A DNA stretch of 64,000 bases from Burhinus oedicnemus. Taxonomy: Eukaryota > Chordata > Aves > Charadriiformes > Burhinidae. Each line of letters begins with the position of its first letter. The stretch's first letter is position 1. Both the position numbers and the translations under genes were made by a program. The stretch is taken from NCBI GenBank assembly GCA_008921705.1, contig VFFE01008914.1, positions 475,673-539,672 of the forward strand. The letters run 5' to 3'. The notes beneath the pieces are model-generated. The model made no database searches. It saw nothing but the letters and a program-made list of their open reading frames with translations, and was not told the origin of the DNA. Shown piece after piece: positions 10,501-64,000 of this stretch.

Positions 10501-11337
10501 ATACTATGACTTGAAGTAGATGATTACATCTCAGTAATTACACTGCAACCAAAGTGAAAATCAGGATGAATTCTTTATACTGTACTGTACTTCAAGCAGC
10601 CAAAATGAGGAAGCATGAAAAGGATAATAAGGGGGAGGAGGGTGGGGGAAGGGGACAGGGACTGGGACAGCGGATGGACAGACTAGGTATGGCACAGAAA
10701 TTTCTGTCCAAAACGATGAGAAAGGAGTTATACAGACATTAAAAGGATTGGACCTGGGGACATTTCATATTTCAGATGAAACAATAACTGTGCTTATACA
10801 GTAGTAAAGGACAGAGCACGAAAGGACCAATAATTAAAACAGTTCTTCAAGTAACAGCCTAATCTCCTCTATATACATACTATGTCATTGATTGGCTTTA
10901 TTGCCTAAAAGATGAGAATTTCAGCTAATGCTTTTCCTTTCTCCTGTGAAGTATATAAAAAGAGATTACTCTGCAGTTTTTCCCACTCTAGCAGGTATGC
11001 AGCTTTTAAATCAAATGCTGAAACACCATTAAGGTTGTAAACCCAAATGCTCTGAACTCCAAAAATTCAAATTACAACAGCTTCCTCTGACATGTTCACC
11101 AGCATATTTTTCTGGAACTTAATTCAGTCTTTAGGGAGAGTCTAAAGGATAGCATGCTTTGTTCAGTCTGTATGTTGGCTTCATTCTTTCATACATGGCT
11201 ACTTCTTAGGCATAAAAACATTAGCCAACTAGTTATATTTCCAGGATCAGGAAAACGGTTCTGTCATTTGCTTTGTACTAAAGGCTGGGGAGGCCAAGTT
11301 GGCAGCTACCGTTGCTTGCACTAGAGAAGGGAATATG
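7521..11337. other. Non-coding, no clear element
   Basis: AT-rich. A (CAAA)n-like patch lies near 8,050-8,066 and an octamer-like ATGCAAAT at about 9,239. A weak resemblance to a very old CR1 3' region at about 9,863-9,960 (GGAAGATTTTTTCACC, then TGTGGAAGG) is too poor to call. No supported gene. Confidence 0.5.
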
Positions 11338-11519
11338 GACCATGTCCAGACCTTTTTTTTAATATCTCCAAGGAGGGAGTTACCACATCCCCTCTAGGCA
11401 ACCTTTTCCAGTGCTTAGTCACCCTCACAGTAAAAAAAGTGTTTCCTGATGTTCAGAGGGAATTTCCTGTGTTTCAGTTTGTGCCCATTGCTTCTCGGCA
11501 CCACTCTAAGCTAAATAGT
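11338..11519 (-). mobile_element. CR1 3'-region block, duplicate A
   Basis: An antisense CR1 segment (CATGTCCAGACC through GTTTGTGCCCATTGCTTCT). It is nearly identical to 11,957-12,138 at an offset of 619 bases. Both share deviations from usual CR1, including a T-run before AATATCTCC, GTTACCACATCC, and the same deletion after CCCATTGCTTCT that joins straight to GGCACCACTCTA. Confidence 0.8.
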
Positions 11520-11867: not shown

Positions 11868-12180
11868 ACAGAATGGTTGAGGTTGGAAGGGACCTCTGGA
11901 TGTCATCTGGTCCAAATCTCCTGCTCAAGCAAAGCCATCTAGAGCCAGCTGCCCAGGACCACATCCAGACCTTTTTTTAATATCTCCAAGGAGGGAGTTA
12001 CCACATCCTCTCTAGGCAACCTTTTCCAGTGCTTAGTCACCTTCACAGTAAAAAAAAGTGTTTCCTGATGTTCAGAGGGAATTTCCTGTGTTTCAGTTTG
12101 TGCCCATTGCTTCTGGGCACCACTCTAGACTAAACAGTCCCAGCTCGCACAGCCTTTCCTCACAAAAGAGATACTCCACT
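11868..12180 (-). mobile_element. CR1 3' end, antisense, containing duplicate B
   Basis: Starts with the reverse complement of a CR1 3' end (GAATGGTTGAGGTTGGAAGG), then TCTGGTCCAAATCTCCTGCT and the block 11,957-12,138 shared with 11,338-11,519. It continues to TTTCCTCACAAAAGAGATAC. A 5'-truncated, 3'-complete CR1, as target-primed reverse transcription normally leaves. Confidence 0.85.
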
Positions 12181-19030: not shown

Positions 19031-19147
19031 ATAGAATCACAGCATCATAGAACCACAGAATGGCTGATGTTGGAAGGGATCTCTGGAGGTCATCTGGTCC
19101 ACTTCCCCTACTCCAGTACGGCCATCTAGAGCCAGTTGCCCAGGACC
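19031..19147 (-). mobile_element. Host CR1, left (3'-end) piece
   Basis: The reverse complement of a CR1 3' end (CATAGAATCACAGCATCATA, then TGTTGGAAGGGATCTCTGG and GAGCCAGTTGCCCAGGACC). In an intact antisense CR1 the next bases would be CATGTCCAGACG. Those occur at 20,872, after the inserted element, so this piece and 20,869-21,490 were one CR1. Confidence 0.88.
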
Positions 19148-20868
19148 TGGTTACCTGGGATATAGAGAAGGCCAAGCTGCTCAACAAATTTTTGCCTCAT
19201 TCTTCACTGGTGAGTGTTCTAGCCACACTGCCCAAGTCACAGAAGGCAAAGACAGGGCCTGGGACAATGAAGAACTGTCCACTGTAGGAGAAGACCAGGT
19301 TGAAGACCAGCTGAGAAACCTGAAGGTGCACAAATCCATGGGACCTGATGACATGCATCTGTGGGACCCGAGGGAACCGGCAGATAAAGTTGCTAAGCCA
19401 CTATCCATCATAGTTGAGAAGGCAGTCTGGTAAAGTTCCCAGCGACTGGAAAAGGGGGAACATAACCCCCATTTTTAAAAAGGAAAAAAAAGAAGACCCT
19501 GGGAACTAGAGGCTAGTCAGTCTCACCTCTGTGCCTGGCAAGATCATGGAGCAGATCCTCCTGGAAACTCTGCTAAGGCACATGGAAAATAAGGAGGTGA
19601 TTGGTGACAACCAACATGGCTTTACTAAGGGCAAATCGTGTCCGACTAACTTGGTGGCCTTCTACAACAGCATTACAGCACTGGTGAATAAGGGTAGAGC
19701 AACAGACATCATCTACCTGGACTCGTGCAAAGCATTTCACACTGTCCCACACCACCTCCTTCTCTCTCAACTGGGGAGACATGGATTTGGCAGATGGACC
19801 ACTTGGTGGACAAGGAATTGGCTGGATGGTCACACTGAAAGAGTTGTGGTCAACGGCTTGATGTACAAATGGAGACCAGTGATGAGTGATGTTCCTCAGG
19901 GCTCAGTATTGGGACCGGTAGTGTTTAACATCTTTGTTGGCAACATGGACAGTGGGATTGAGTGCACCCTTAACAAGTTTGCCGATGACACCAAGCTGTG
20001 TGGTGCAGTCAACACAGTGGAGGGAAGGGATGCCATCCAGAGGGACCTGGACAGGCTTGAGAGGTGGGCCCGTGCAAAGCTCATGAAGTTCAACAAGGCC
20101 AGGAGCAAGGTCTTGCACGTGGGCTGGGACAATCCCAAGCAGAAATACAGGCTGGGTGGAGAAGGGATTGAGAGCAGCCCTGAGGAGAAGGACTTGGGTG
20201 TGTTGGTGGATGAGAAGCTCAGCGTGACCCGACAATGTGTGCTTGCAGCCCTGAGAGCCAAGCACATCCTGGGCTGCACCAAGAGAAGCATGACCAGCAG
20301 GTCGAGGGAGGTGATTGTGCTCCTCTACCCAACTCTGGTGAGACCCCAGCTGGAGTACTACATCCAGCTCTGGGGCCTCCAACTTAAAAGAAGGTCATGT
20401 ATCCATTGGAGCGGGTCCACAGGAGGGCCACAAAGATGATCAGAGGGCTGCCCTATAAGGAGAGGCTGAGAGTTGTGGTTGTTCAGCCTGAAGAAGAGAA
20501 GGCTGGAGGGATACCTTCTAGCAGCCTTCCAGTACTTAAAGGGGGCCTACAGGAAAGGTGGAGAGGGACTTTTTATCAGGCAGCGTAGTGACAGGATGTG
20601 GGGTAATAGTTTTAAACTGAAAGGGGGTAGATTTAGATTAGCTATTAGGAAGAAATTCTTTACTGTGAGGGTGGTGAGACACTGGAACAGGTTGTCCAGG
20701 GAAGTTGTGGCTCCCCCATCCCTGGAAGTGTTGAAGGCCAGGTTAGATTGGGTGTTGAGTAACCTGTTTAGTGGAAGGTGTCCCTGCCCATGGCAGGGAT
20801 GTTGGAAGTAGATGATCTTTAAGGTCCCTTCCAACCCAAACCATCCTATGATTCTATGATTCTATGAT
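19144..20868 (+). mobile_element. CR1 inserted into an older antisense CR1
   Basis: A sense, 5'-truncated CR1 begins in the linker just before RT (GACCTGGTTACCTGGGATAT). It runs through RT, the ORF2 C-terminus and 3' UTR, and ends in the canonical tail ATTCTATGATTCTATGATGA. It interrupts an antisense CR1 between CCCAGGACC and GAGCATGTCCAG. The junction leaves only 2-4 bases of possible target duplication (GA or GACC/GAGC), which fits CR1's short or absent duplications. Confidence 0.92.
19531..20439 (+). pseudogene. CR1 ORF2 reverse transcriptase relic
   Basis: A 302-codon open frame of CR1 reverse transcriptase, the longest in the window. Visible RT features from the frame's first Met are the entry region with HGFTKGKSC (residues 29-37), motif [12 protein letters not shown] (62-72, catalytic Asp64 retained, the second Asp of the usual AFD replaced by His), motif [14 protein letters not shown] (121-133) and catalytic FADD (150-153). 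The N-terminal EN is absent through 5' truncation. The frame is lost near residue 283, where the usual HKKDMDLLE stretch is scrambled, and the C-terminal part continues in another frame to about 20,800. A full CR1 ORF2 is roughly three times longer, so the product would be inactive. Confidence 0.88.
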
Positions 20869-21490
20869 GAGCATGTCCAGACGACTTTTGAAGACCTCCA
20901 GGGATGGAGTCTCCACAACCTGTCTGGGCAACCTGTGCCAGTGATTGATCACCCTCACAGTAAAATGGTGTTTCCTGATATGCAGATGGAACCTCGTGCA
21001 GTTTATTTGTGCCCATTGCCTGTTTTCCTGTCACTGGAAAACACTGAGAAGAGCCTGGCTGTGTCTTCTTTAGACCCTCCCTTCAGGTATTTACATATAT
21101 TGAGAAGATTCCCCTCGACGCTTCCCCTCTGTAGGCTAAATAGTCCCAGGTCTTTCAGCCTTTTCTCACAGGATAGATACTCCATCCCTTCTTCATCTTT
21201 GTGGCCCTTCATTGGACTCTTTCTGCTCTCTTTTCCCTATGAACCCAGAACTGGACACAGTACTCCAGGTGTGGGCTTACCAGAGCTGAGTAGAGGGGAA
21301 GGATCCCCTCCCTTGACCTGCTGGCAGTCCTTTGCCTAATGCAGCCCTGAATACCGCTAGTTGCCTTTGCTGCAAGGGTACACTGCTGGTTCGTTTTCAA
21401 TTTGGTGTCCAACAGGTCTCCCTTGTCCTTTTCTGCAAATCTACTTTCCAGCTGAGTGGGCTCAGTATATTCTGGTGCATTCATTTCAAA
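20869..21490 (-). mobile_element. Host CR1, right (upstream) piece
   Basis: Resumes the antisense CR1 interrupted at 19,147 (GCATGTCCAGACGACTTTTG, CCTGTCTGGGCAACCTGT, AACCCAGAACTGGACACAG). It proceeds into ORF2 C-terminal sequence as far as the equivalent of [10 protein letters not shown] and [20 protein letters not shown] on the minus strand. It fades out near 21,490. Confidence 0.88.
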
Positions 21491-29484: not shown

Positions 29485-29996
29485 TTTCAGGACCCCGGTT
29501 GACAGAGTCCCTTGGAAAGCAGTCCTGAAGGGCAAAGGCATCCAGGAAGGCTGGACATTTTTCAAGAAGGATGCAGGAGCAGGCTGTCTCCATGTGCCGA
29601 AAAATGAACTGTCAGGGAAAAAGCCCAGCCTGGCTGAGCAGAGAGCTACAGTTGCAACTCAGGGAAAAATGGAAAATTTATGGTCTTTGGAAGAAGGGGC
29701 AGGCCACTCAGGATGTTGATAGGACGAGAGGAAATGTCCTCAAGTTGAGCCAGGGGAGGTTTAGCTTGGATATGAGAAAAAATTTCTTCACAAAAAGAGT
29801 TATCAAACATTGGAACAGGCTGCCCAGGGAAGTGATGGAGTCACCATCCCTGGAGGTATTTAAAAGATAGGTAGACGTGGTTGTGAGGGACGTGGTTTAG
29901 TGGTTGTTTTGGCAGTGTTAGGTTGATGGTTGGACTCGATGATCTTAAAGGTCTCTTCCAACCAAGGTGATTCTATGATTCTTTTCTATGATTCTA
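29485..29996 (+). mobile_element. Internally deleted CR1
   Basis: Two distant CR1 parts are fused. About 29,485-29,716 is the ORF2 linker between EN and RT (CCAGGAAGGCTGGACATTTT, TTATGGTCTTTGGAAGAAGG). From about 29,720 the sequence is the 3' region (ATAGGACGAGAGGAAATG, AACATTGGAACAGGCTGCCC) ending in GGTGATTCTATGATTC. All of RT is missing, and the junction is in the GATGTTGATAGGAC area. The fusion creates a short open frame at 29,571-29,870 that mimics a gene. Confidence 0.88.
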
Positions 29997-34022: not shown

Positions 34023-34122
34023 AGAATAGAATAGAATAGAATAGAATAGAATAGAATAGAATAGAATAGAATAGAATAGAATAGAATAGAATAGAATAGA
34101 ATAGAATAGAATAGAATAGAAT
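34023..34122 (+). repeat. Perfect (AGAAT)20 microsatellite
   Basis: Twenty uninterrupted copies of AGAAT over exactly 100 bases; on the minus strand (ATTCT)20. It directly abuts the 3' end of the antisense CR1 that follows, so it occupies the place of that element's ATTCTATG-type tail and probably grew from it. Confidence 0.97.
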
Positions 34123-37432: not shown

Positions 37433-39020
37433 TATAGAACCATAGAATGGTTTGGGTTGGAAGGCACCTTAAATATCATCTTGTTCCAACACCCCTGCCA
37501 TGGGCAGGGACACCTTCCACTACATCAGGTTGCTCAAAGCCCCATCCAGCCTGGCCTTGAACAACTCCAGGGATGGGGCATTGACTTCTCTGGCCAACCT
37601 GTTCCAGTGTCTCACCACCCTCACAGTAAAGAATTCCTTCCTAATAGTTAATCTAAATGTACCCTCTTTCAGTTTAAAACCGTTAGCCCTCCTGCTATCA
37701 CAACACTCCCTGATAAAGAGTCGCTTCCCATCTTTCCTGTAAGCCCCTTTAAGTACTGGAAGCCTAATAAGGTCTTCCCAGAGTCTTTTCTTCTCTAGGC
37801 TAAACAACTCCAACTTTCTCAGCCTGTCTTCATCAAGAAGTGCTCCAGCCCCCTGATCCTCTTTGTGGCCCTCTTCTGGACCTGCTCAAGCAGGTCCATG
37901 TCTTTGTTGTACTGGGGACCCCAGAGCTGTATGCAGTACTCCAGGTGGGGTCTCAAGGGAGCAGAGTAGAAGGGCAGAATCACTTCCCTCGACCTGCTGG
38001 CCACACTTCTTTTGATGCAGCCCAAGATACAACTGGCTTTCTGGGCTGTTAGTGCACATTGCTGGGTCATATCCTGGTTTTGAATCACCAATACCCCCAA
38101 GTCCTTCCCTGCAGGGCTGCTCTCAATCCACTCATCATCCATCCTGTATCCATGTTTGGGATTGCCCTGACTCAGGTGCAGGACCTTGCACTTTGCCCTG
38201 TTGAACTTCATGAGGTTCACACGGGCCCACCTCTCAAGCATGTCCAGGTCCCCCTGGATGGCATCCCTTCCCTCCAGAGTATCAACCACACAACTCAGCT
38301 TGATGTCATCAGCAAACTTGCTGAGGGTGCACACAATCCCACATCCTTGACAAAGATGTTAAATAATATTGGTCCCAGTATGCACCCCTGAGGGACTGGT
38401 CTCCACCCAGACATCAAGCTGTTGACCACCACACTTTGAGTGCAACCAGTTTGTTATCCACCAAGTGGTCCACCCATCAAATCCATGGCTCTCCATTTTA
38501 GAGACAAGGATGTTGAGCAGGACAGTATCAAATATTTTGCACAAGTCCAGGCAGATGATGTTAGTCATTCTTCCCTTATCCACCAGTGCTGTAACCCTGT
38601 CATAGAAGGCCACCAAATTTGTCAGGTACGATTTGCCCTTAATGAAGCCATGCTGACTGTCACCCATCACCTCCTCATTTTCCATGTGCCTTAGCAGAGT
38701 TTCCAGGATGATCTGCTCAGTGATCTTGTCAGGCACAGAGAAGAGACTGACTGGCCTGTAGTTCCCAGGGTCTTCCTCTTTTTCCTCTTTAAAAATGTGG
38801 GCTATGTTTCCCCTTTTCCAGTCAGTGGGAACTTCACTAGTCTGCCATGACTTTCCAAATATGATGGATAGTGGCTTAGCAGCTTCATCTACCAGTTCCC
38901 CCAGGACCCTTAGAGGCACCTCATCAGGTCCCATGGATTTGTGTACCTTCAGGTTCTTTAGACAGTCTTGAATGTGATCTTCTCCTACAGTGGGCAGCAC
39001 TTCATTCTCAGTATTCCAGG
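37433..39020 (-). mobile_element. Long antisense CR1, 5'-truncated
   Basis: Begins with the reverse-complement 3' end (AACCATAGAATGGTTTGGGT) and runs through 3' UTR, the complete RT portion and into the pre-RT linker (minus strand [19 protein letters not shown]). It is truncated near 39,020. Similar subfamily to the 19,144-20,868 copy. Confidence 0.93.
37819..39000 (-). pseudogene. CR1 reverse transcriptase relic in two frames
   Basis: The upstream frame (about 39,000-38,359) holds [10 protein letters not shown], the [12 protein letters not shown] entry motif, HGFIKGKSY and motif [12 protein letters not shown]. It then goes out of frame in the motif B region. The second frame (38,334-37,819) resumes with KFADDIKLS, keeping the catalytic Asp pair, then the C-terminal RCSREV-type stretch (CIKRSVASRSREVILPFYS). 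The break lies around 38,334-38,359. There is no EN domain, so this is a dead 5'-truncated copy. Confidence 0.88.
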
Positions 39021-39651
39021 TGAAGTAAAAATACATTGATATTTTGCCTCGGATTACTCTTGCAATAATGTATATGCATGTTAGACAGCGTAAATACATT
39101 TGCAGGTACCTAAGAATAGCCACACAAACTTGAAGTATTAAAAATTAATGACAATATCAACAACAACCCATAAATAAACAATGGCCTAAATGTTAGGTCA
39201 CAAAACACAGTCACTAGTTCTGGTACCTGAAGTTTTGCTTCATTCATGATACTTTCTGTACATGAGCTAATACTAACCACTCAAGAAATGCTATTTAATG
39301 ACAGCTATAAAATGAATTTACAATGACAGTTGCATTTTACTATTTGACCCAAAGGTATATTGGTTTTACTAAAATAAAAATTAATAAATTGAAATCAAGG
39401 GAGTTGTTTCATTTAAAACTTCCAGTGGAAATACTTATATAGTTTTATTTTGTGTAACAAAAAGGGCTAGGTATAATATCTAAGAACCTATTCAAAATAT
39501 AAGGGAGAAAATTATTGTTTAAAGACTATTTCAATGAAATCTTGAAAAAAAAAGTCAGAGATCAAAACAAACATATCATATTAGTCAAACTAATACTGTT
39601 AATTGTGGCTAATTCGTAACATTGTCTGAAGCATTAATATATTCATATGTG
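39021..39651. other. Spacer between opposed CR1 copies
   Basis: AT-rich, unique. It separates an antisense CR1 on the left from a sense CR1 on the right. Confidence 0.45.
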
Positions 39652-40220
39652 TGACGAGCAGGACTAGGGAAGCGATTGCCCCCCTGTACTCAGCACTGGT
39701 GAGGCCCCATCTTGAATACTGTGTTCAGTATTGGGTCCCTCACTAAAAGAAAGACATTGAGATACTGGAGCATGTCCAGACAAGGGCAACAAAGCTGACG
39801 AAGGGCCTAGAGAACAAATCTTTAAGGAGCAGCTGAGGGAACTGGGGTTGTTTAGCCTGGAGAAGAGAAGGCTGAGGGGAGACCTTATTGCTCCCTACAG
39901 CTACCTGAAAGGAGGTTGTAGTGAGGTGGGGGTCAATCTCTTCTCCCAAGTAACAAGAGATAGGACAAGAGGAAATGGCCTCAAGTGACACCAGGAGACG
40001 TTTAGATTGGATATTAGGAAAAATTTCTTCACAGAAAGGGTTCTCAAACATTGGAACAGGCTGCCCAGGAAAGTGGTGGAGTCACCATCTCTGGAGGTAT
40101 TTAAAAGCCAGGTAGATGTGGTGCTCAGGGACATGGTTTAGTGTTGATTTTGGCAGTATTAGGTTAACAGTTGGACTCGATGGTCTTAAAGGCCCTTTTC
40201 AACATAGACGATTCTATGAT
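39652..40220 (+). mobile_element. Sense CR1, 3' end
   Basis: 5'-truncated in the ORF2 C-terminal region (TACTCAGCACTGGTGAGGCC). It continues through GGTTGTTTAGCCTGGAGAAG and AACATTGGAACAGGCTGCCC to the 3' end AACATAGACGATTCTATGAT. Same orientation and 3' type as the 29.5 kb copy. Confidence 0.92.
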
Positions 40221-48320: not shown

Positions 48321-48578
48321 TGCTGTGGTTTAACCCTGTTAGGCAGCTAAGCCTCACACAGCTGCTCGCTCATTCCCTCACAGCAGGATGGGAAAGAGTT
48401 GGAAGGGTGAAAGTCAGGAAACTCATGGGTTAAGATAAAGACAGTTTAATAGGTAAAGCAAAGCTGCATGCGCAAGCAAAGCAAAAGAAGGAATTCATTT
48501 ACCCGCTATCAGCGGGCTGATGTTTAGCCATTTCCAGGAAGGTAGGGCTTCATCTCATGTAACAGTTACTTAGGAAGA
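48321..48578 (+). mobile_element. Solo LTR, left part (avian endogenous retrovirus)
   Basis: Starts TGCTGTGGTTTAACCCTG, the conserved start of an avian ERV LTR family common in songbird and other neoavian genomes. It continues through CTCACAGCAGGATGGGAAAG, AAGATAAAGACAGTTTAATA and CAGTTACTTAGGAAGA. It stops at 48,578, where a CR1 begins, and resumes at 50,288. No gag, pol or env sequence is attached, so it is a solo LTR, presumably left by recombination between two LTRs. Confidence 0.88.
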
Positions 48579-50287
48579 TGGACAAGAAGGCGGCTGAGGT
48601 ACTTAACAACATTTTGCCTCAGTCTTCACTGGCAACCTCTCTTCCCACACTTCTCGAGAGGATGGACTGCAAGGCAGGGACTGGGGGAGAAACTCCCTCC
48701 CACTGTAAGAGAAGATCAGGTTCGTAACCACCTGAGGAACCTAGATGTACAGAAGTCTACGGGACCTGACGAGATGCATTCCAGAGTTCTGAGGGAATTG
48801 GCTGATGTAGTTGCCAAGCCACTCTCTATGATATTTGAAAAGTCATGGCAGTCAGGTGAAGTCCCTGGTGACTGGAAAAAGGGAAACATTGCACCCATTT
48901 TTAAAAAGGGTAGAAAGGAAGACCCTGGAAACTACTGACCTGTCAGCCTCACCTCTGTGCATGGGAAGATCATGGAACAGATCCTCCTAGAAGCTATGCT
49001 AAGGCACATGGAGGACAGGGAGGTGATTCAAGACAGCTGGTGCGGCTTCATCAAGGGCAAGTCCTGTTTGACCAACCTAGTGGCCTCCTATGATGGAGAG
49101 ACTACATCAGTGGACAAGGGAAGAGCTACGGATGTCATCTATTTGGACCACTCTAAGGCCTTTGACACAATCCCCCACAACATCCTTCTCTGTAAGTTGG
49201 AGAGGTATGGATTTGTTGGGTGGACTGTTCGGTGGATGAGGAATTGCTTGCATGGTCACATCCAGAAGGTAGTAGTCAACAGCTTAATGTCCAGGTGGAG
49301 ATCAGTGACAAGTGGTGTCCCTCGGCGGTCCATATTGGGACCAGTACTGTTCAATGTCTTCATCAATGACATAGACAGTGGGATCGACTGCACCCTCAGC
49401 AAGTTGGTGGATGACACCAAGTGAGTGGTGCAGTTGAAAAGCCTGAGAGATGGGATGCTGGGATGCCATCCAGAGGGACCTGGACAAGCTCCAGAAGTGG
49501 GCCCATGTGATCATCATGAGGCTCAACAAGGCCAAGTGTAAGGTCCTGTACCTGGGTTGGGGCAACCCCCAGTATCAATAAAGGCTGTGGGATGAAGGGA
49601 TTGAGAGCAGCCCTGCCAAGAACAGCTTGGGGGTACTGGTGGATGAAAAGCTGGACATGTGTGCTCGCAGTCCAGAATGCCAACCGTATCTTGGGCTGCA
49701 TCAAAAGAAGCATGGCCAGCAGATCGAGGGAGGTGATTCTGCCCCTCTGCTCCACTCTGGTGAGACCCCAAGTGGAGTACTGCATCCAGCTCTGGAGCCC
49801 TCAGCACAAGAAAGACATGGACCTGTTGGAGCGGATCCAGAGGAGGGCCACAAAAATGATCAGAGGGAAGGAACACTTCTCCTATAAGGAAAGACTGAGA
49901 GAGTTGGGGTTGTTCAGCCTGGAGAAAAGAACACTCCAGGGAAACCTTCTTGCGGCCTTTCAGTACTCAAAGGGGGCTTATAAGAAAGATGAGGAAAAAC
50001 TTTTTAGTAGGTCCTGTTGCGATAGGACAAGGGGCAATGGCTTTAAACTAAAAGAAGGAAGATTTAGACTAGATATAAGGAATAAATTTTTTACAATAAG
50101 GGTGGTGAAACACTGGAGCAGGTTGCCTAGAGATGTGGTAGCTGCCCCATCCCTGGAAACATTCAAGGTCAGGTTGGATGGGGCGCTGAGCAACCTGTTC
50201 TAGTTGAAGATGTCCCTGCTTATTGAGGGGAGGTTGCACTAGATGACCTTTAAAGGTCCCTTCCAGCCCAAGCTATTCTATGATTCT
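48579..50287 (+). mobile_element. CR1 inserted into the LTR
   Basis: Sense, 5'-truncated CR1 starting in the pre-RT linker (TGGACAAGAAGGCGGCTGAG). It runs through RT and the ORF2 C-terminus to the tail AGCTATTCTATGATTCT. The four bases before it (AAGA, 48,575-48,578) recur just after it (AAGA, 50,288-50,291), giving a 4-bp target duplication. The LTR reads continuously across when the CR1 is removed. Confidence 0.93.
48957..50203 (+). pseudogene. CR1 reverse transcriptase relic in two frames
   Basis: The first frame (48,957-49,424) has the RT entry region ([15 protein letters not shown]), motif [12 protein letters not shown] with its Asp retained, and motif B as [13 protein letters not shown], where the usual PQG is PRR. 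The catalytic box reads LVDD instead of FADD, and the frame stops right after it through loss of one base in the CCAAGCTGAGTGG context. A small GGGATGCT duplication follows near 49,453-49,468. The second frame (49,592-50,203) encodes the C-terminal domain (CIKRSMASRSREVILPLCST) to a stop at the natural ORF2 end. No EN. Confidence 0.88.
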
Positions 50288-50624
50288 AAGACAAATGCCA
50301 TAACTCTGAACATCTCCCCTTCCTTCTTCTTCCCACAGCTTTTATGCTCAGCATGACATCATATGGTATGGGATATCCCTTTAGTCAGTTGGGGTCAGCT
50401 GTCCTGGCTGTGCCCCCTCCCAAATTCGTGTACACCCCCAGCCTACTCGCTCATGGAACAATGCAAGAAGTAGAAAAGATCTTAACGCTGTTTAAGCACT
50501 GTTCAACAATATCTAAAACATCTATGTCTTATCAATGCTGTTTTGGTCACAATTCTAAAACATAGTATCACGCACAAGCTGTTATGAAGAAAATTAATTC
50601 TATCCCAGCCAAAACCAGTATGAC
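50288..50624 (+). mobile_element. Solo LTR, right part
   Basis: Continues the LTR from 48,578 (AAGACAAATGCCATAACTC) through AGCATGACATCATATGGTAT, TTTAGTCAGTTGGGGTCAGC and AATTAATTCTATCCCAGCC, ending AACCAGTATGACA. Flanking bases show no clear 5-bp duplication, probably through decay. Together the two LTR parts are about 595 bases. Confidence 0.88.
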
Positions 50625-52850: not shown

Positions 52851-55800
52851 GGTTGTGCAATACATTTGACCAGTACAGCTTGATACTTTTGGTATGAGTA
52901 CTTAATTTGGTCAAGTGAGCATAGTGAAAGTCAAACTTTCCAATACTGATGAGGTTTTTATTTTCTTTGGACTGTGGTTACAGAATGACTTATGAGGTTC
53001 AGTGTTCTACACCTGTCTGTCTTTCCTTCTTGTTGGGCTCCTGATGAGTGCTAAGATCCCACAGTCAAGCTTTCCCACAGGAATTGCTTAACTCATGGCT
53101 TCTGGCTGGATGCTCAGGCTTTCCTTTAAGTTCTCCAGCTCCCTGGCTGGCCTCCTCCACCACTGGGTTGTCTTGGCCATCTGCCCTCGGTATTTTTTCC
53201 TCTCGATTTCACCTCTGCTCTCTGCTCTGTGATGTTCTTTTCTCTAACTGCTGAGTGGACAGGAGACCAATTTCTAAAACTTCCTCCTAGTTCTATTTCC
53301 CCAAACTGATGACTGAGTATAATTATTTATTTCAGCTCCTTCTCAGCATGTCCCTTGACAGGGAGCAGCCAAAGGGCAGAGTGAACATAGTGAGAGAGGG
53401 ATGCATTCTTCTCAACACTAAAATGTGGCAGCAGCAATATTTACTCTCAATCTTCCTGGTTTTTGAAAAGTTTGAGGAGAGAGTAGAGTGACTGGTAGAA
53501 GTCTGAAAGAAGTAGAGGTGAAATAAAAACAGAGATATCCAAAGAAAGAGGCTCAGACACAGAAAAACAGCATAGTGTCTATCAACATATAGATGAAGAG
53601 CAATCTAAAGATGAAACCATCTAAGAAAAGCTGATATATATTAAAATTAAAAAAATCCCTGAAGAAATGTGTATCCTTTAATATTTTCCCTTGTTAGGAT
53701 ACACACTAATTTATACCATAGCTTCCAGTTTAGTTAAACTCATCTTTACAAATGGCAAAACTGATCCTGAATTTGAGATCGGTGAAAATAAAAAAACGTG
53801 AGTCTATAAATGATCTAAAAGTCAATACAATGAGGTAGGTTGTGAACTAGACTATACCAGTGAAGCCTTTGAAATGTCCTATCAGCAATCTGGGAAACAA
53901 ACAGAATGCAGCTGCACCCTTGGAAAGCAGAATGGATTGGGTTGTGTTTGGTTTTGCCATGTATCTAAAACAGCTAGAAACACAGAAGCTAATTTACATA
54001 AACTCACAAACTCTGTTGGGACCAGATATAACTTCATTAAAGTCAGTAAAAAAAGTCCTGGTTGGTAATACAAAGTAGTCTAAAAGCTTTAATGAAAACA
54101 CATGATTCTTCAGTGCTGGAGTCTAGTACTGTCTTTGACAACTCTCCGTGATGAATGTGAATTGAGTATACCTCAGCTACCAAATTAGAAATCTCCACTT
54201 CTTCGTGAGGGCATGTTTGTGTTAGATAATGATTCCAGCAAGTGATTAGCTAGAAGTTTTTGGTACATCTGTACTTCTCCTATAGCTGAATGTTTATCAG
54301 AAAGAAGATAGATCAGAGAAAAGCAGAAAAGTATTACTAAAGGGATCAAAGAGCATGAGGAATGAAGAAAACATTTGAAATAGGAACATGCTAGGGTGAA
54401 CATGCAAAGGTAAGGGTTCACAACTGAGCTCACAGTCATTCAAGACTCATATTCAGCAAATATGAGAAACATAAAGAGATGTTCATTAGAAACTTATAAC
54501 TGAAGCTTTCATACTGCATTTGCTCAATATTTGAAATTCCCATAGAGATCATTTTGATGCCTTTTTCAGAGGAATAGAGTACTCACACAGGGCAAAATAT
54601 CACAACAGTGACTTTCTAGATATGATTAATTTAAAATATTTTCATGACAACAAAAGATAGCATGCTCCATGTAACTTACATGACTTCAGAGTTCATGCTG
54701 AATCCAATAACTAATATTTTTAAGCTTGATGACAATTTCTAATAGATAGTAAAACTCAAATACATATATATTGTTGGTTCCAAAGGACAGATAGAATATA
54801 ATCACCATTAATGTTTCTAATCTTGATGTTTTGAGCTTGTGCCGAAATCAAAATATGTTTTAAGTAAGAAACATATATATGTGATTTAATTTTTTTAATT
54901 TATAAAATCCTTCTTGAATACTATCTTGTACACCTTTAATGGATAAAACTTCAGGTAACATCAATGTTTAATTCTTACTTCATGCACTAGGGGGTTCCCT
55001 TTCCCTCCTATTATGTAGAATTTCCTAAATAGTTTAGCATATATATTTAGGATAGCAGGAAAAAACATCAAGTGTGTTTTTGATTTGATGCTATTTTAGG
55101 TAGAGGAATTTATTCAGCACACTAAGCTTTCACTATATGAAGAATTCAGACTATAATCCTGTCTCTAATAGAAGGATATGTAATATTATCCTGTATTTTG
55201 AATCTGTACATTTGCAGATATAAGTATATTTCAAAATTCTTGAGCTGTATGTGAATGATATTTACTAAAATAAATCATATTTTTATACACTTATTTGTGG
55301 ATAAAATCTTATTTTTGCACAAAACACAAAGACATTATAGAGTTATAATAAAGTCATAATAAAGTAAAATACATAGGGATAAAAAATATGACAGAGCAAT
55401 TTTTTAATGTAAATTTTAAAATAGTGTGCCATTGTGTTTTCTTTTTCAAATATGAAAAACTTAATCCATCAAACTATATGTGCTATGGTATTACATTTAT
55501 TCACATTTATACAATACATCAGAGATGTTGGTTGGTTGGTTGGTTGGTTAGGTAATAGTGTTATCAGGTTCTGAGACACCTATTAAGGCCGAGACTAACT
55601 TCTGTTCAATGATTGACTTTACCCTCTCAGAAGTTTCTCTTACATTCAGAACAAATTTGGTAGTAAAGGGAATGTTTTTGAGAAGGGTTTGGGGAAATGG
55701 TAAACTCTAAAAACATACTACATTTGTCCAGTATCTTACACTCTTCTAATAATAACAATAGCAAGTTCTGTTCAAAACTTCTGTTGAATCAAAACTCCTC

Positions 55801-58800
55801 AAATATTCATACATTAATTATAGTAGGAAAATAGGCTGTAGTGTAACAATCCTTTAAATTAAACTTACTCTTCTTTCTAGTTGTTTCTGTCTGCATCTTA
55901 TTCCATGCACCCAAGTCTAGGGTAATCTAAGTAGGACTCAATGACAGACTGAAGACATATATTAGATATCTATGTATAAATATCAACTCAGTGGAGACCT
56001 AACTAATACAGTAGATGATGCAGACAGCTTTTCAGCTGACAAAATCTAGGTGTCTTTGTTAGGGTGAGCTGAATATTTCTCCAGAAAATCTCTACTGGCT
56101 TCTTTAATTAGATTTCCATTTTGACCATAGTGGAGCTAGACATCCCAGACTACACAGACACATACAGTCATGTATCTACAGTCAGGACCTGAACCATCTT
56201 CCTAAAGTGTTTAAAGAGAAAATATTATCTTTTCCTGTCGAATTTCAGATAGGAAATAATATTATGGGCTTAATTCAGTTACTCACACATGATACATACA
56301 GTACCACTTACAAAGGTCTAGGTATCTAAGACACGTGCACAAACCTTGCAGATATGATACAGGACATACAAAGAGTCCCATGCCCCTCTAAAGCGGAAGC
56401 TGGACCCCATATGCTAAGGCATCTGAAAAAGCACCGGTTGTCTAAGTGTAAGCAACTGAGTAAAACCCTAAGTTTCTTGTAAGTGCTAAAAGAAAATGCA
56501 TTTATTTCAATGAAACAAGGAGTAGCTCCATCTAGACTTACCTATTGGGATGTGATACAGCATGCCCTGCAGTAAGAGTGTCTTTCATCCATCCTCTACT
56601 GGAATACATAAATCCTGACATTCAGAGAACACAAAAAAGTCCCTTTGCATACAAACCATGATGTACTGGAAGAAGTTTGCTGTCCTCAAAGTCTTCATCC
56701 TAATAAAGTCTCTGGCAGCATAATGTCCAGATCTGGGAACTGATAAGCATGTCTGAATATTGTAATGTTATCATAGCCAAAATCATTCTGATGACATCGT
56801 AACTATGAAACATAACTTCTCTTTAGTGTTTGTATAAGTATATGGCAAATGAAATCACAAAGCATTCAAGTAGGAACAAGTTTTCTTAAACATCGTGCAT
56901 AGCTACAGCTGAGCATAGTTATTGTTCATATCTGCATTCATAGACTGAAAACTAGCAGTACAACCCAATGTAGCTTTCCATCATTGCTAAGTCTGGTTAA
57001 CTTGCCTTTGCATTTACAATTGCTCCAGCTAAACTGACATAGTAATTTGCTAAGCTAATGCCAGATGCTTGTGTTTGTCTGTTCTATCTTACCATTTAAA
57101 AATTGACTTTGCTAGTTTAGTTTCTGCATAACTTCTTAATCTTAACTCCTATCTTATTACTTTAAATGTACATTCACATGATTACAATCACTACATTTAT
57201 TGCAATTTAACAAGTTACCATTTGTCAATAGATCAGCTTAATCATGATTTCAACTTTCAAAATGGTTAATGTGCTTAGCTCCACTTAAAGGTATCTCATT
57301 TCACTTGCAAAGAGGCATGATATGTTAGAGAAAGGAAGGTACGCATATGTTAATTACCTTGGCTCAATTCACAACAGATAATTTGATAAGCAGCAGTAAC
57401 CTGATCAGCTGAAGCAATCTGAACATATTCTGAAACCCTGTAGCCATAGACATAAATATTTCTGGGAATGTGGTTTGTGGAATAAATATCCCCAGCTGTA
57501 CGTTTGGTCCCTCTCCTGAAGGTTACTACCACCAGAGCAGAGCCAGTTATACATACATTGTCCGTACTCCCCTCTTGCCTCAGTACAAAGTCAAAGGACT
57601 TTGTTCAAAAACGTATCTACATCATCAGATTTTCTGGTGGGTTTTACCTGGTGTTTTATTTAGAAAAAGTGAGAAAGGTAGCTTCAGAACACCTATGTAG
57701 CACTGGTAATAGTAAGTCATTTGGAGCAGTATGTTTTCTAAAAAAATGAGAGCCATATACAAGTAATTTGTTAAAGCAAGAGTAAAGAAAAGACAAGGTA
57801 TGAACTGACCAGGACATCATCTGGAAGGTGTGATTCCCTGCATATGTAGTATTGCACTGCTGACAAAGTAGCTTGTGAGAGATTTTAATTTTTGCCTGAA
57901 AATACTCATCAAAGCTTGAGGAATCATATTTGATGTGATAGATAACAGAATGGCACAGCAGAAGATATCTTATTTTCTCATTTGTTAATATAAACAGGAT
58001 GGTGTCAAATTTCAGGCATTACCTAACGAGTCAGAATTTAGGTTATCAACCCACTGGTGACTGGGTAGCCCTGCATTCACATGCATGCCAGATTCACACT
58101 GCAAGCATGTATTATTAATTTGTTTGTTTGTGTGCGTGTGCATATTAACATTAATGAATCCACCAATATCCATGTATATATTCAACTATCCATGGGTATG
58201 GATTTCACTATATGAATGGATTTATTTCATCATTATGCTTTTCCCATTCACCTAACATCCACCTGACATTTAACAAACAGAATACCATTAAAAACCTAAC
58301 ACTTGAAGGATTGTGATTACATTAAAATTGCATATTTATACAGCAGGCATTATTTCATTACAAATTTCATTAACTTTTTTTTAAGGAAACACATAATATA
58401 AGCATTTTGTGCACTGTACATGGAGATAAATTCCTATGAACAGAATGAAAGAACTGGAAGAACAGAAAAGAAAAAAAATCATATTATTACATTCCATTAC
58501 CATATCTATTATAAAACATATTTAGCAACAGTGAATACTTTTTCAATGTTTCAAATATTAGCCTGTGTAAAAGTGATGAAAGTTTTGAACCATAAAATCT
58601 TTTGTTATGCCAAAATTTATAAAGGTGTACTTAAAGAACATGTCCTGGTTTTCTAGCTGTAAAAGACTATACTTTCACTGCTACTGATATGCAGACTGAA
58701 GTGCTCTGAATTAATCCATTTGGAAGTCATCAAGTTTCTGAGCATGACCAGTTTTACAGTAAGAGTGCCCAAAAATTATTAGAGTGCTTCAGATATTTTA

Positions 58801-59010
58801 AGTGCTTCAGCTTAGAAGCAATAAAGCTATCCAACCTGCCCCCTACAACACATTTTTAAGAGTCAGTTTTTAAAAGGCAGCATAAACTTAGCCTGTGATG
58901 CCTGTTATATGATCATGTGTCTGACTGTTTGTGTGTGCCCATCCTTGATTTGACAATCACCTGTAACATTTTTAGTATACATTATGATTGGTTTCTATTA
59001 TAAACACAAC
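52851..59010. other. Non-coding
   Basis: Long AT-rich stretch. A (TTGG)5 microsatellite lies at 55,528-55,547. At 55,920-56,470 scattered GGTCTAGGTATCTAAG- and CTAAGGCATCTG-type words suggest an unassigned old repeat. A small pyrimidine-rich patch sits near 53,090-53,250. No gene supported. Confidence 0.4.
55528..55547 (+). repeat. (TTGG)5 microsatellite
   Basis: Five perfect tandem copies of TTGG followed by TTA. Confidence 0.9.
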
Positions 59011-59014
59011 AATC

Positions 59015-59115
59015 TAGGTTCTCAGCTGGTTTAAATTGGTATTGTTCTACTGGAGCCAGTGAACAAATATTGACTTCAATGGGGCTATGTTGATTTATAT
59101 TTCCAGAAGACTTAT
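59015..59115 (+). repeat. Old amniote near-palindromic repeat, copy 2
   Basis: GGTTCTCAGCTGGTTTAAAT, then TTGGTATTGTTCTACTGGAG, a short insertion, then TTGACTTCAATGGGGCTATG and TTGATTTATATTTCCAG. The two halves are degenerate inverted copies, as in copy 1. It retains both arms of the palindrome (CAGCTGGTTTAAAT... and ...GATTTATATTTCCAG). Confidence 0.5.
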
Positions 59116-60944
59116 CCCACTGTGTGGAAATACACTTTATTACAATAAATTGTGTTTGCACTTCATTTGGTCCCAAGAACCCTCACTGATCATGGCAAAT
59201 ACTTTTCCTTATTGATGTCTCTTCCTAAATTTTAATCAAACACTCTGCACCTCAGTGTACATCACAAGTGTATGGTAATTGAAGAGATGTGCATGAGGTT
59301 ATGTTACTTTCAATTATGTCATTTAAAATTTTCTCAGTTCTTTAGGCTTAAGAAGCACTTTATATATAACTGCAAGGTTATACACTAAAGCACACCACTG
59401 TCAATATCTCAACTTAGATAAAAATGATTCCATCTAACTAATTGTTTTCCAAGATTTTGTGAATCACGTGAAGTTTTACTTAAGTAAATAGCGCAGTCAC
59501 ACAGTATCATTTGACTTGACCATTGTAGCAGATCTTAAATATTTCAAAAAGCTTTGCAAGTCACTATTCAGAAAGTTTTGGCCCAGGGAAACAATGTCCA
59601 ACAAGTCCTCTAAGCCCTACATCAAAATATCTATACAATAAGGAGATATTTCAGATAACTAAGGGAAAAGGCAGATCTGGGAATGATTCACAGGAAAGAA
59701 AGTGTATCTCCCTGTGCTCCACTCTTACGCCCTTCAGTGAGTTCAGTGCATTGGCCCGGCTGCTCTCTCCTCACCATCTTCTCTCAAAGGCATGTCTTTT
59801 CCTTCCACAGCAATGCTCGTGTATACACATCCTCACAAAGTCAATAGCACGCAGTTTTAGCATAGGGCCGCACAGGAAGTGCCCATGGTACAAGCATACC
59901 TCAATGTAGATCGCCCATCACAATGCACTTCGCAAACTAGGCGAACACAAAGGAGGGTGTCTTAGGCAAGAAACCATTAGAAGTGGTAAACATTTACACC
60001 AAATAGCTCTGGTTTAATAACAGAGTAGCAGATCAGGATAGCTGGCTCAGTTTGTTTGCAAGGAAGAAAAATCAATATATATCCATTTTCCATTGTTTTA
60101 TTCATGTCGTTTCATATTACTTAAAAGGTAACAAGAGGAAGACTTTGCTCTAGAACTGCATTCTTCTGAAAATGAACTCTTGTCTGTGCTGAAATTCGCA
60201 ATTACAGGTGTAATCAGATATTGCGTTGTAGAAACATATCCTCAGAAGCTTAAGGAACACTTGTTTCAAACAGGCCAGATAACAGTTAGTACTGTATTGG
60301 ACTTCAGAACTTAGAAATGTTACTGTTATGTAATTTTTCCAAAATTTCTAAAGCAGACAATAGTAAAGACACAGCTAAATACTATCATGATGTTAAGAAC
60401 TAGTACAAAGCAAAGCAGAAAGCAAATATAGCTGCACCAGTAACCCTTTCAGTTATATGAAAATTAAAGAACGTGATAAATATATGTATCTAAGGGTAAG
60501 CACTAAAGAAAAGCATGAGAACTGAAGGATGAAACTAAAAAAGGACTAAGGCCAAAAGCAAGTTACAAACAAGTTACTTAGTAGGGAAAGAATGGCTCAT
60601 AGAGTATTTTGAAAACTTGGTTCATTGTCAGTAAGTAATATCTGATGAAATCCATCCTCTGGCATTAAAGAATCCACTAAACACAACCTCCAGAATGTTA
60701 GTGTTCTTTTCTGGATACTAAGGAAGAAATAATGATATTTAAAAGAACATAAGGAAAGCAATATAAATGAAAAAGATAATCAAAAGCAGACAAAGTCAGC
60801 CCAATTCTAGCACCCACAGAAACAACAGAATAACTTAATGGAACAATTACTTTGTTAACACCTCTGTAATAATAAGATGACCAGAAATAGATACCATGGA
60901 CACTAATCAACAGCTGTCTCTCACGTGTGTCATTTCCTTTCTGG
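59116..60944. other. Non-coding with a CpG-enriched patch
   Basis: Mostly AT-rich. About 59,725-59,945 holds eight CpGs, many for this window, and a strong acceptor-like CTTTTCCTTCCACAG at about 59,797-59,811. The sequence after it is open for 32 codons in one frame, but no strong donor follows. Confidence 0.4.
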
Positions 60945-61290
60945 ATACTGTAACAGGTCTATTGTATATAGGTGATTCAGTAGACCTGGTATATCTACTA
61001 AAACTTTGTTTAGGATTCTGTATCAGATGAAACAATGATGGATTTGCATCTAGTTGAAAAACTACATGAATAGTAGCTATTAACAGTAAAATTGTGAAGA
61101 TATATCAAGGAAGCTCCTAGGGGTACCCTTCAGAGTATTGTGTTACGTAAAGGTTTTATTAACACTTTGTGCAATAGATCAAAGAGCACACCTATAAAAA
61201 TACATTTGATAAAAAACTCAGGAGTAGTTGTAATCATTTTTCAAACAAGATGAATTCAGAATGATATTGATCAACAAGTAAGAGCACCTG
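60945..61290 (+). mobile_element. Ancient CR1 fragment, RT palm region
   Basis: Collinear with an old amniote CR1 RT: GGTGATTCAGTAGACCTGGTATATCTAC (motif A surroundings, SVDLVYL), GTTGAAAAACTACATGAATAG, GTAGCTATTAACAG, GATATATCAAGGAAGCTC with GGGTACCCTTCAGAG (motif B surroundings), GTTTTATTAACACTTTG and TAAAAATACATTTGATAAAA (decayed KFAD region). Heavily indel-ridden, no frame. Confidence 0.6.
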
Positions 61291-62538
61291 TTTTAAGCTC
61301 AATTTCAGATTTTTTTTTAAATAATTTTCATACAATATCTCTGGTAAGAAGTTGTGATATGTTATTATAGGTCTCTGACACGACTGCTTTGTTTAATGCT
61401 TTTTTGTCTCTGACTGGAAGAGTAGGGAGGAAGGGACAGAGACTTGAAATGAATTTAAGTTCTGTCTTTGTTTGACTAGATGTTATGTTCGGTTTTCCAA
61501 TAAAGTTAAGAGATTTCTGAGTGGAAATTAAGACAATTCTCTTTTTCTATTACGACTTCCCCAGTCGTAGAAGAGTCTACTTGTCAGTAAAAGACTTGTT
61601 GAGATGCAGTTCTCAGATCAACATTATACAGATTGCATCTGCATCTGGCCCTGAAATCCTACTGTTGTCATGGGTATTACAGCAGATGGAAGAAACTTCA
61701 AGATGGCAAGAGCATCTTTACTTGAGTCAAAAACTACGAGTTGCAGAGATAATTAGATTTTGTGTTCATTTGATAGATTTTGCGTTATGGAAGGTATAGA
61801 CCATAAGAAAATCAAATCTAACTTTGGTAGATTTTTGTAGGTGCTGTAAGTTTTCCCTAGTCATGAGTGTCATTGTTGAGCTGCCAAGGTATGAACTTCC
61901 CCGTACGAAAATACCTCATACACAAAGTCTGGTGGGGTAAGTTCATAACCGTTGTTCCCCAAACTAATAAGCAGTTAGAAGTGTGGAAGCAAGAACCTTG
62001 ACTTTAAGAATATCAGCTGTTAATTCCTGTGGGCTGTAGTTTTCTATTAGATTTACCACATCAGGAGCTGTTTGATAGTGAAGACACTAACTGGAAGATA
62101 TTTAATTATACAATATTCACACGCTTCTCATAGGTCCCATGAGGTAAATTATTTCATGAATGAGACGTTTCGTGATTGGTCTGATAAATTTTGTAGCTGA
62201 TATGAGAACAAAGGTTATTGAAAATGGAACTTCCAGACAATATGATGTCACATAAGAAGAACTAGAAATTCTTTATACATAAGATTAACCATCAGTAACT
62301 TTTAAGATAAATAATGCAAAGAAGTGCATCAGTATCTGTACTTGCACTCAGGTTGTGGAATTTGAATTCTTTTGATATATCAGACAGCACTGAAAACAGA
62401 TTAAACTACATGCTACAGGATGTTCCGATTAACTAATTTTCATTGCCTTGAAAATACCCATTTATAATTATAAAAAAGTCCAACAATCTTAAGTACTGAC
62501 CTAAAAAAAACCAGAATGCATAGACAGGGCAGTATTGT
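61291..62538. other. Region upstream of the gypsy RT, unassigned
   Basis: This is where gag and protease of a Ty3/gypsy element would lie. I see no CCHC zinc knuckle, no D-T/S-G protease motif and no clear LTR or primer-binding site. An open frame at 61,521-61,799 has no recognised motif. Confidence 0.35.
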
Positions 62539-63230
62539 TACCGGCTTCCTTCCATGCCAGACTCCATGTCAAGAGCAAAATATTTTACTGGTTTTGACTG
62601 AGAATCTGGATACCATCAAATTAGGAAAGAAAAGGAAAAAAAAAAAAAAAAAACAGTAGGTGAAGATTAAGGGGGAAAAACCCCACATTTATGACACCCT
62701 GTCAATTACTTCAGTCCTCTAGAATGCCTTTCAAACTGCAAGTGTATGAGGGACTGTTCAGAAGGCACTAAATGATCTAAACCACATTTTGAGAATTTAA
62801 GACATCCTCACATATTTAGATGACTTCATTTGTTTCCATAAAACATCGGAAGAACATCTGGCAGGAGCGGAAAAGCTTCTAAAGCTTTTTAAGGAGTAAT
62901 GGTTTAAACTTGAGAAAAACAAATGTCAATTTGTGAGGGATTGCATTACCTTTTAAGGATATGCATGTTCTGAAGATGGGTGGAAGCCTCAGTCACAGAA
63001 ACTGGATATTAAGAAATATTGGATAGTTCCTGGAAACATGGATGCAAAATCTTGTGCAGATTCTTGAGGACACTTACACAGAGTTTTCCAAAACAGCCAA
63101 CTAAAAGCAGCTTTGTCATGATAGAAAAACATGAGAAAGCTTTTGATTTCCTGAAAAGGTTTAAAGCCATACATTGTTTAAATTCCTGAAAATATACAAG
63201 CAGCTTATAGCAACTTGTGATTTCTCAGAA
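62539..63230 (+). pseudogene. Ty3/gypsy-type reverse transcriptase fossil
   Basis: The RT domain of a Ty3/gypsy LTR retrotransposon, split over three frames. 62,539-62,625 reads YRLPSMPDS, then AKYFTGFD, a stop, and ESGYHQIR: the block around the first catalytic Asp (62,596-62,598). An 18-A run follows (62,636-62,653), with a frame change. 62,721-62,732 reads RMPF, the start of the RMPFGL block. After a further frame change, YLDD, the catalytic box, is at 62,813-62,824, followed by KTSEEHLAGAEKLLKLFKE, a stop, LEKNKCQF, a stop after CITF, and GYACSEDG. Next come the thumb-like IVPGNM and QNSQLKAAL, and HEKAFDFLKRF at the expected start of the connection to RNase H. Order and spacing match gypsy RT and differ from CR1 (FADD) and from retroviral RT. 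It is clearly inactive. RNase H and integrase cannot be followed beyond about 63,230. Confidence 0.82.
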
Positions 63231-63920
63231 GTTAATGTCAGCGTTAGGTAAATAAATCAGTAAGATGCTGAATAGCAGTTTTTAAGATATTAAAAATTGT
63301 AGCAAAATTAAATACTCAAATTTATAATCTGAACTATGAGGAGGCCTCAAAGAGATATTCAATAAGAATGAAATGCATCAGATACATGAACTATAATTCC
63401 TTGTAGTCTTTACCTACAAACCAGAGAGTCTTCTGGAACTGGGCACACAAACTGCCTAAAAAGAGTGGCAGTTATGCATTTGCTTGAAAAACAAAGTGCC
63501 AGCATACGTGTTTCAAGCTGACTAATGGCAATGAGATTAGAGACACTGAGGTTCAGTGGATGTATTCAAGAAAAACAGTCTTTGGAGGTTAAATTGCAAG
63601 ATTATTCCAGTACTAATTTGCATAGTTATGCATGTAACAGAATTGTTGCATTGCTGCTGTTGTCAGCAGTATACACAGAGGAGACCTGAAATGTCCTCAA
63701 AGTCTATGGTGGCTGGCCAGCTGGAGGTAAAAAGATACTAGGTCCTCAGTCTGACTAGGTGTTTTTAGTTTTCCTTTTTTTTACACGGCCTGTTTGATGG
63801 CTGGGTATTTTCCTATCTTATTTGTTAAGAGACCTTGATTCTGGAGAACAAAGACTGATTTCCAGAAACACTACGAAATTTTATAGTAGAGAAGCCTGGG
63901 AGATGTCTGAGGAAGCATTG
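63231..63920. other. Possible continuation of gypsy pol, undecidable
   Basis: RNase H and integrase would be expected here, but no HHCC zinc-binding or D,D35E pattern can be read by eye. AT-rich, with stops in all frames. Confidence 0.3.
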
Positions 63921-64000
63921 CTATATTCTTCTTTCTTTTTTTTTTCTTTTTTTGTTTTCCTTTTCCCCCCCCCCCCCCCCCCCCCCCCCTCTCTCCTTCT
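63921..64000 (+). repeat. Poly-pyrimidine tract with C25
   Basis: T-rich tract followed by an uninterrupted run of 25 C (63,965-63,989) and CT-rich sequence to the window edge. Length is likely unreliable, because homopolymers of this size are error-prone in sequencing. Confidence 0.9.

What the first reader, a model, noticed from the sequence alone, without database searches (positions are those of the whole stretch)
62539..63230. Ty3/gypsy reverse transcriptase fossil in a bird genome
The blocks YRLP, AKYF, FD-stop-ESGYHQIR, RMPF, YLDD, KTSEEHLAGAEKLLKLFKE, KCQF, GYACSEDG and the downstream thumb-like stretch occur in the order and spacing of a Ty3/gypsy RT. They sit in three frames, with stops and an 18-A expansion inside the domain. 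Ty3/gypsy elements are scarce in birds, where CR1 and ERVs dominate. The copy may be a pre-avian relic shared by all birds and reptiles, or a rare lineage-specific invasion.
Basis: partly seen in the sequence, partly recalled or inferred. Interest (0 to 1): 0.8.

Follow-up and report, generated by a model that had tools for sequence, protein, structure and literature searches.

The report
Decayed Ty3/gypsy reverse transcriptase fragment
A broken remnant of a reverse-transcriptase gene from a Ty3/gypsy retrotransposon sits in what looks like bird DNA; such relics are seldom described in birds, but the kind of fossil is well known.

Summary
From 62539 to about 63040 (faintly 63156), six to seven stop-bounded pieces in three + frames match a Ty3/gypsy reverse transcriptase in order and spacing. 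The frame-2 stretch 62765-63067, X at stops, scores 34.4 bits, E 2.3e-8, against Pfam RVT_1, above its cut-off. RVT_1 is the only Pfam match (E<=10) when 54010-64000 is scanned in six whole frames. The collinear chain scores 39.3 bits; the best of 60 simulated 64-kb sequences gave 13.2. Among solved structures yeast Ty3 RT is joint best for one block and best for another. LINE (CR1-type) origin is rejected. No gag, protease, RNase H, integrase or LTR was recognised. Four in-frame stops, about three frame changes and an 18-A run: a dead fossil.

The bird host is plausible but unproven: the own-genome search did not complete. Age and orthology were not tested; decay suggests roughly 0.1 to over 0.5 substitutions per site. 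Gypsy fossils in amniotes are known (PMC9004415); one review calls Gypsy absent from birds (PMC7397244). New member of a known kind, modest interest.

The parts
62539..62598 (+). RT block, YRLP..AKYF..FD (up to an in-frame TGA at 62599-62601)
   Evidence: positions 68-85 of the six-RT profile, 3.6 bits; with the next block and X at the stop it aligns to Ty3 RT 4ol8 138-169, E 0.13 and to RVT_1 64-93, 13.2 bits, E 0.073, below the cut-off
62602..62652 (+). RT block ESGYHQIR, running into the A-rich stretch
   Evidence: piece 62602-62667, 5.7 bits, positions 88-104; second profile 9.6 bits
62636..62653 (+). run of 18 A inside the former domain; between this side and the YLDD block the DNA is about 31 nt longer than the profile
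   Evidence: (offset -31)
62679..62762 (+). RT block with RMPF, in another frame
   Evidence: piece 62664-62768, 8.0 bits, positions 102-123; nothing on its own in Pfam or PDB
62765..63040 (+). RT palm with YLDD, KTSEEHL..LLKLFKE, KCQF, GYACSEDG; three in-frame TAA stops (62798-62800, 62897-62899, 62954-62956)
   Evidence: RVT_1 147-204/205, 34.4 bits, E 2.3e-8; Ty3 RT 4ol8 E 1.6e-4; 49.0 bits to a relative of the Ty3/gypsy kind
63064..63156 (+). possible thumb/connection remnant (KAFDFLKRF) back in the first frame, about 46 nt nearer than the profile expects
   Evidence: 0.5 bits only, collinear; weak. The longer piece 63013-63189 matches 6PGD by chance and no RT in Pfam

Best explanation
A decayed, non-coding fragment of the pol gene (RT domain only) of a Ty3/gypsy LTR retrotransposon that inserted in the germ line of an ancestor of the host, stopped moving, and decayed without protein constraint. 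RT identity, collinearity, stops and frame changes are shown. Insertion through RNA copying and integrase, and neutral decay, are inferred from the family. The rest of the element was lost, has decayed past recognition, or lies beyond the window end at 64000.
For: Pfam RVT_1 34.4 bits; sole Pfam match when 54010-64000 is scanned in six whole frames; Ty3 RT joint best and best solved structure for two blocks in two frames, in order (4ol8 210-267 and 138-169); collinear chain far above null; 49.0 bits to a relative with RT, RNase H and integrase domains (P0026).
Against: The 32-aa YLDD piece alone finds only ferritin by chance in PDB. Two searches of 5.8 billion proteins gave nothing at E<=10 (candidates were limited to 183-583 aa and shared words). 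No other pol part, gag or LTR was recognised. A caulimovirus RT (8r0s, virus group recalled) ties with Ty3 for the main block. The RMPF piece has no Pfam or PDB match alone and at best 7.4 bits to a relative. Chance-level Pfam matches to unrelated families occur next to it: 6PGD 0.0089 and 0.013, vRNAP_dom 0.15.
Confidence: 0.93

Rival explanations
1. Relic of an endogenous retrovirus (ERV) rather than a Ty3/gypsy element.
For: Pr125Pol (foamy virus, recalled) matches the main block at E 0.0025, and a POL protein (5ovn) at 0.13.
Against: Ty3 is higher (1.6e-4), and the AKYF..GYHQIR block finds Ty3 and no retrovirus. No ERV profile was tested, only PDB entries.
Confidence: 0.04
2. Decayed LINE (CR1-type) RT, the common bird element.
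For: CR1-type copies fill about 11% of the window by blastn and encode RVT_1 domains.
Against: Three of these ORFs give no match starting in 62400-63300 better than E 13 among 3470 pieces; 5 weak ones were listed at E<=100.
Confidence: 0.01
3. Pseudogene of a host gene domesticated from a Ty3/gypsy element (RTL1-like), or an exapted conserved non-coding element.
For: Such genes exist in mammals and two keep parts such as protease, RT or RNase H (PMC11011659, passage).
Against: No long open frame. Constraint could not be tested. Recalled: no RT-bearing member is known to me in birds.
Confidence: 0.04
4. The host is not a bird but a crocodile or turtle, so a Gypsy relic is commonplace. This does not compete with the RT identity.
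For: Host unnamed; a review gives 3% Gypsy for crocodilians (PMC7397244, passage).
Against: CR1-type LINEs are the only interspersed repeats I recognised here, with ATTCTATG-type 3' ends (bird-likeness recalled); no repeat library was at hand.
Confidence: 0.15

Closest known systems
Ty3/gypsy (Metaviridae) reverse transcriptase, e.g. yeast Ty3 (PDB 4ol8, 7q5b)
   Same: Block order and spacing, YLDD motif, GYHQI block
   Different: Stops, frame changes, A-run; no other pol or gag part recognised; non-coding
Pre-amniote Gypsy protein fossils (Frith 2022, PMC9004415)
   Same: Short frame-shifted Gypsy protein remnants in amniote genomes
   Different: Those were dated by comparing genomes; the genomes named are human, alligator, turtle, frog, coelacanth and chimera, no bird; this copy is undated
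MamGyp-int / MamGypLTR relics of mammals (PMC5753468)
   Same: Ancient Gypsy relics in an amniote lineage with only traces of Gypsy
   Different: A repeat family with LTRs; here one fragment, copy number unknown

Membership tests
Ty3/gypsy (Metaviridae) | RT sequence closest to Ty3/gypsy RTs | tested here: met
   a caulimovirus entry ties for one block; BEL not compared
Ty3/gypsy (Metaviridae) | pol order PR-RT-RH-IN | tested here: inconclusive
   only RT recognised; no PR, RH or IN; window ends at 64000
Ty3/gypsy (Metaviridae) | flanking LTRs and target-site duplication | tested here: inconclusive
   no direct repeat of 25 nt or more in 56000-64000; decay, indels or the window end could hide them; target-site duplication not looked for
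Ty3/gypsy (Metaviridae) | gag with capsid domain | tested here: inconclusive
   no gag match in 54010-64000; a truncated or decayed gag could escape Pfam
Retroviridae (ERV) | RT closest to retroviral RT | tested here: not met
   (PDB entries only)
CR1-type LINE | RT like the LINE copies of the window | tested here: not met

The most novel reading that the evidence does not exclude
The fragment is the remnant of a Ty3/gypsy insertion made before crown birds (or before archosaurs), kept at the same site across birds and perhaps crocodiles and turtles, possibly as a regulatory element, which would show that the bird lineage inherited live Gypsy elements and then lost them.
Probability: 0.15. Interest if true: 0.5.

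Novelty: new member of a known kind. Interest (0 to 1): 0.3.

Why it matters
If the host is a bird and the site is shared with other birds or crocodiles, the copy would help date when Ty3/gypsy elements last moved in that lineage; it is also a case that ordinary repeat annotation could miss. As a single undated fragment it changes little.

Tried and rejected
Protein search of the frame-2 and frame-1 stretches in 5.8 billion proteins: 72 and 5 candidates, none at E<=10. PDB search of the 32-aa YLDD piece alone: ferritin by chance; of the RMPF piece: nothing. Viral contigs with an RT motif pattern: 0. Longer pol profile (40 relatives) for PR, RH and IN: 9 pieces listed at E<=20, 3 here in RT; the other 6, among them two - strand pieces at 60600 and 61331 (E 8.4 and 13), are weak and taken as chance; in 58000-64000, + strand, nothing near the expected diagonal beyond 63159. 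LTR search: none. Rfam gathering scan: 0; tRNA: 0. RNA fold of 62539-63067: z -2.02, 4 of 100 shuffles as good; not taken as meaningful. Pfam scan of 60 long frames outside the LINE copies in 1-54065 (60 of the 110 that one search listed): 2 weak matches (Spo7 0.0065, DUF6787 0.0086), taken as chance. Placement among Ty3/gypsy clades: not attempted by tree, because the 120 listed relatives (of 6855) were chosen by likeness to L002, many being plant, microsporidian or unnamed and few animal; the best single match is a green alga's protein (P0026, 49.0 bits), a toad's scores 38.2 (P0075), so likeness here says nothing of origin.

In one search the tblastn half had no query file and returned nothing, so the LINE share (7285 of 64000 bases) rests on blastn alone.

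Full report
Observation. They lie in three + strand frames: 62539-62652, then 62664-62768, then 62765-63067; a faint last block at 63064-63156 returns to the first frame. Four in-frame stops interrupt them (TGA at 62599-62601; TAA at 62798-62800, 62897-62899 and 62954-62956), and an 18-A run sits at 62636-62653.

More than chance. I scored all 3470 stop-to-stop pieces of 12 aa or longer, six frames, whole window, against a profile of six Ty3/gypsy RTs. 35 pieces were listed at E<=50; 6 of the 35 lie here, at ranks 1, 2, 3, 5, 8 and 35, collinear over profile positions 68-220. Only the first is significant alone (E 0.00035). Chaining collinear pieces gives 39.3 bits; 60 first-order Markov sequences of the same length gave mean 5.6, sd 1.7, max 13.2; window 1-62400 gave 5.2. 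A profile from 95 of the 120 listed relatives (the 25 without a near-full RT were dropped) gave 36.7 against a null max of 9.5, and 5.0 for window 1-62400. In one search that profile listed 14 pieces at E<=20, 5 of them here (ranks 1, 2, 3, 11, 13). The references are contaminant contigs in bacterial assemblies and database neighbours of one of them, so clade sampling is uneven.

Independent libraries. The frame-2 stretch 62765-63067, X at stops, matches Pfam RVT_1 over 147-204 of 205 with 34.4 bits, E 2.3e-8, above the 29.6-bit cut-off; the frame-1 stretch matches 64-93 with 13.2 bits, E 0.073, below the cut-off but collinear; the RMPF piece matches nothing. Scanning 54010-64000 as six whole frames, RVT_1 at this place (29.7 bits, E 6.5e-7) is the only family at E<=10 on either strand; shorter pieces scanned alone also drew 6PGD (0.0089; 0.013) and vRNAP_dom (0.15), which I take as chance. 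Against solved structures, the frame-2 stretch finds Ty3 RT (4ol8) and 8r0s (Enzymatic polyprotein; caulimovirus by recall) both at 1.6e-4, Ty3 again (7q5b) at 1.7e-4, Pr125Pol (foamy virus by recall) at 0.0025 to 0.0032, an unrelated PCNA chain at 0.031, two protease/RT entries at 0.075 and a POL protein (5ovn) at 0.13 and 0.16. The frame-1 stretch finds Ty3 (0.13 and 0.48), then an unrelated DNA-repair chain at 1.7, and no retrovirus. The best single match among the fetched relatives is 49.0 bits (P0026, i-Evalue 4.6e-15 in a set of 126). The 32-aa YLDD piece alone finds only ferritin by chance in PDB, and two searches of 5.8 billion proteins found nothing at E<=10.

What was not recognised. 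No gag, protease, RNase H or integrase match and no direct repeat of 25 nt or more in 56000-64000. The window stops at 64000, so the 3' part may lie outside it. Relative to the profile the DNA has about 31 extra bases around the A-run and about 46 fewer before the last block.

Rivals. Three LINE ORFs of the window (RVT_1 domains with 53.5 to 88.1 bits; CR1 by recall) give no match starting in 62400-63300 better than E 13. Retroviral RTs in PDB score below Ty3. BEL was not compared.

What it is and how it works. It is the dead remnant of the RT domain of a Ty3/gypsy retrotransposon. Shown: RT identity, order, stops, frame changes. Inferred: insertion by the element's integrase after RNA copying, then neutral decay. 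It has no long open frame now.

Age. Random decay of RT coding DNA from five of the six contigs (200 runs each per setting), with a transition and CpG bias chosen by me, gives about 4 stops in 187 codons at 0.3 to 0.4 substitutions per site; 4 or more stops occur in 3 to 14% of runs at 0.1, and 4 or fewer in 29 to 39% at 0.5, the largest value tried. With a recalled bird rate near 2e-9 per site per year this is of the order of 50 to more than 250 million years, middle about 150. It is a rough bound, not a date: one locus, chosen rates, and only recognisable blocks counted.

Host. The window holds several CR1-type copies (7285 of 64000 bases by blastn) with ATTCTATGATTCT at three 3' ends. The name CR1 and the bird-likeness of such ends are recalled. 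No tool named the host.

Against what is known. Frith 2022 (PMC9004415; first of eight parts of the text and passages seen) reports Gypsy protein fossils older than the amniote/amphibian split in human, 4 in table 4, and 83 pre-amniote ones in table 5; no bird is among the genomes named. A review (PMC7397244, passages) speaks of the absence of Gypsy in avian and mammalian genomes and of 3% Gypsy in crocodilians. A capsid survey (PMC11011659, passages) lists one metaviral capsid-like ORF in chicken against 13 in alligator and 32 in turtle. The gyrfalcon paper (PMC9997569, passage) tabulates 15,529 Gypsy copies, which contradicts absence; misassigned ERVs are my guess. Repbase review (PMC5753468, passages): MamGyp relics in human. 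Passages of PMC5006616, PMC5486457, PMC9025612, PMC8310711 and PMC4299795 added nothing on Gypsy copies in birds. I saw no paper describing this copy in the listings (one search listed none), which cover open-licence papers only.

Verdict. Interest rests on the unproven bird host and the untested orthology.

Noticed in passing
19045-21020, 37434-39144, 48546-50300, 29718-29992, 39649-40143: CR1-type LINE copies with long open stretches (up to 309 aa at 19510-20436, RVT_1 88.1 bits), 74-79% alike among the three long copies; blastn share 7285 of 64000 bases.
   Followed up: partly
11337-11519 and 11956-12138: A pair of direct copies of 183 bases, 94.6% alike, overlapping CR1-type stretches; perhaps a fairly recent local duplication.
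   Followed up: no
34023-34122: Perfect AGAAT pentamer array, 20 copies.
   Followed up: no
63965-63989: Run of 25 C next to a T-rich stretch near the window end; possible sequencing or assembly artefact.
   Followed up: no
L001-L006: Ty3/gypsy-type retrotransposon ORFs in contigs filed under bacterial metagenome-assembled genomes: probably eukaryotic contamination in species genomes of the collection.
   Followed up: partly
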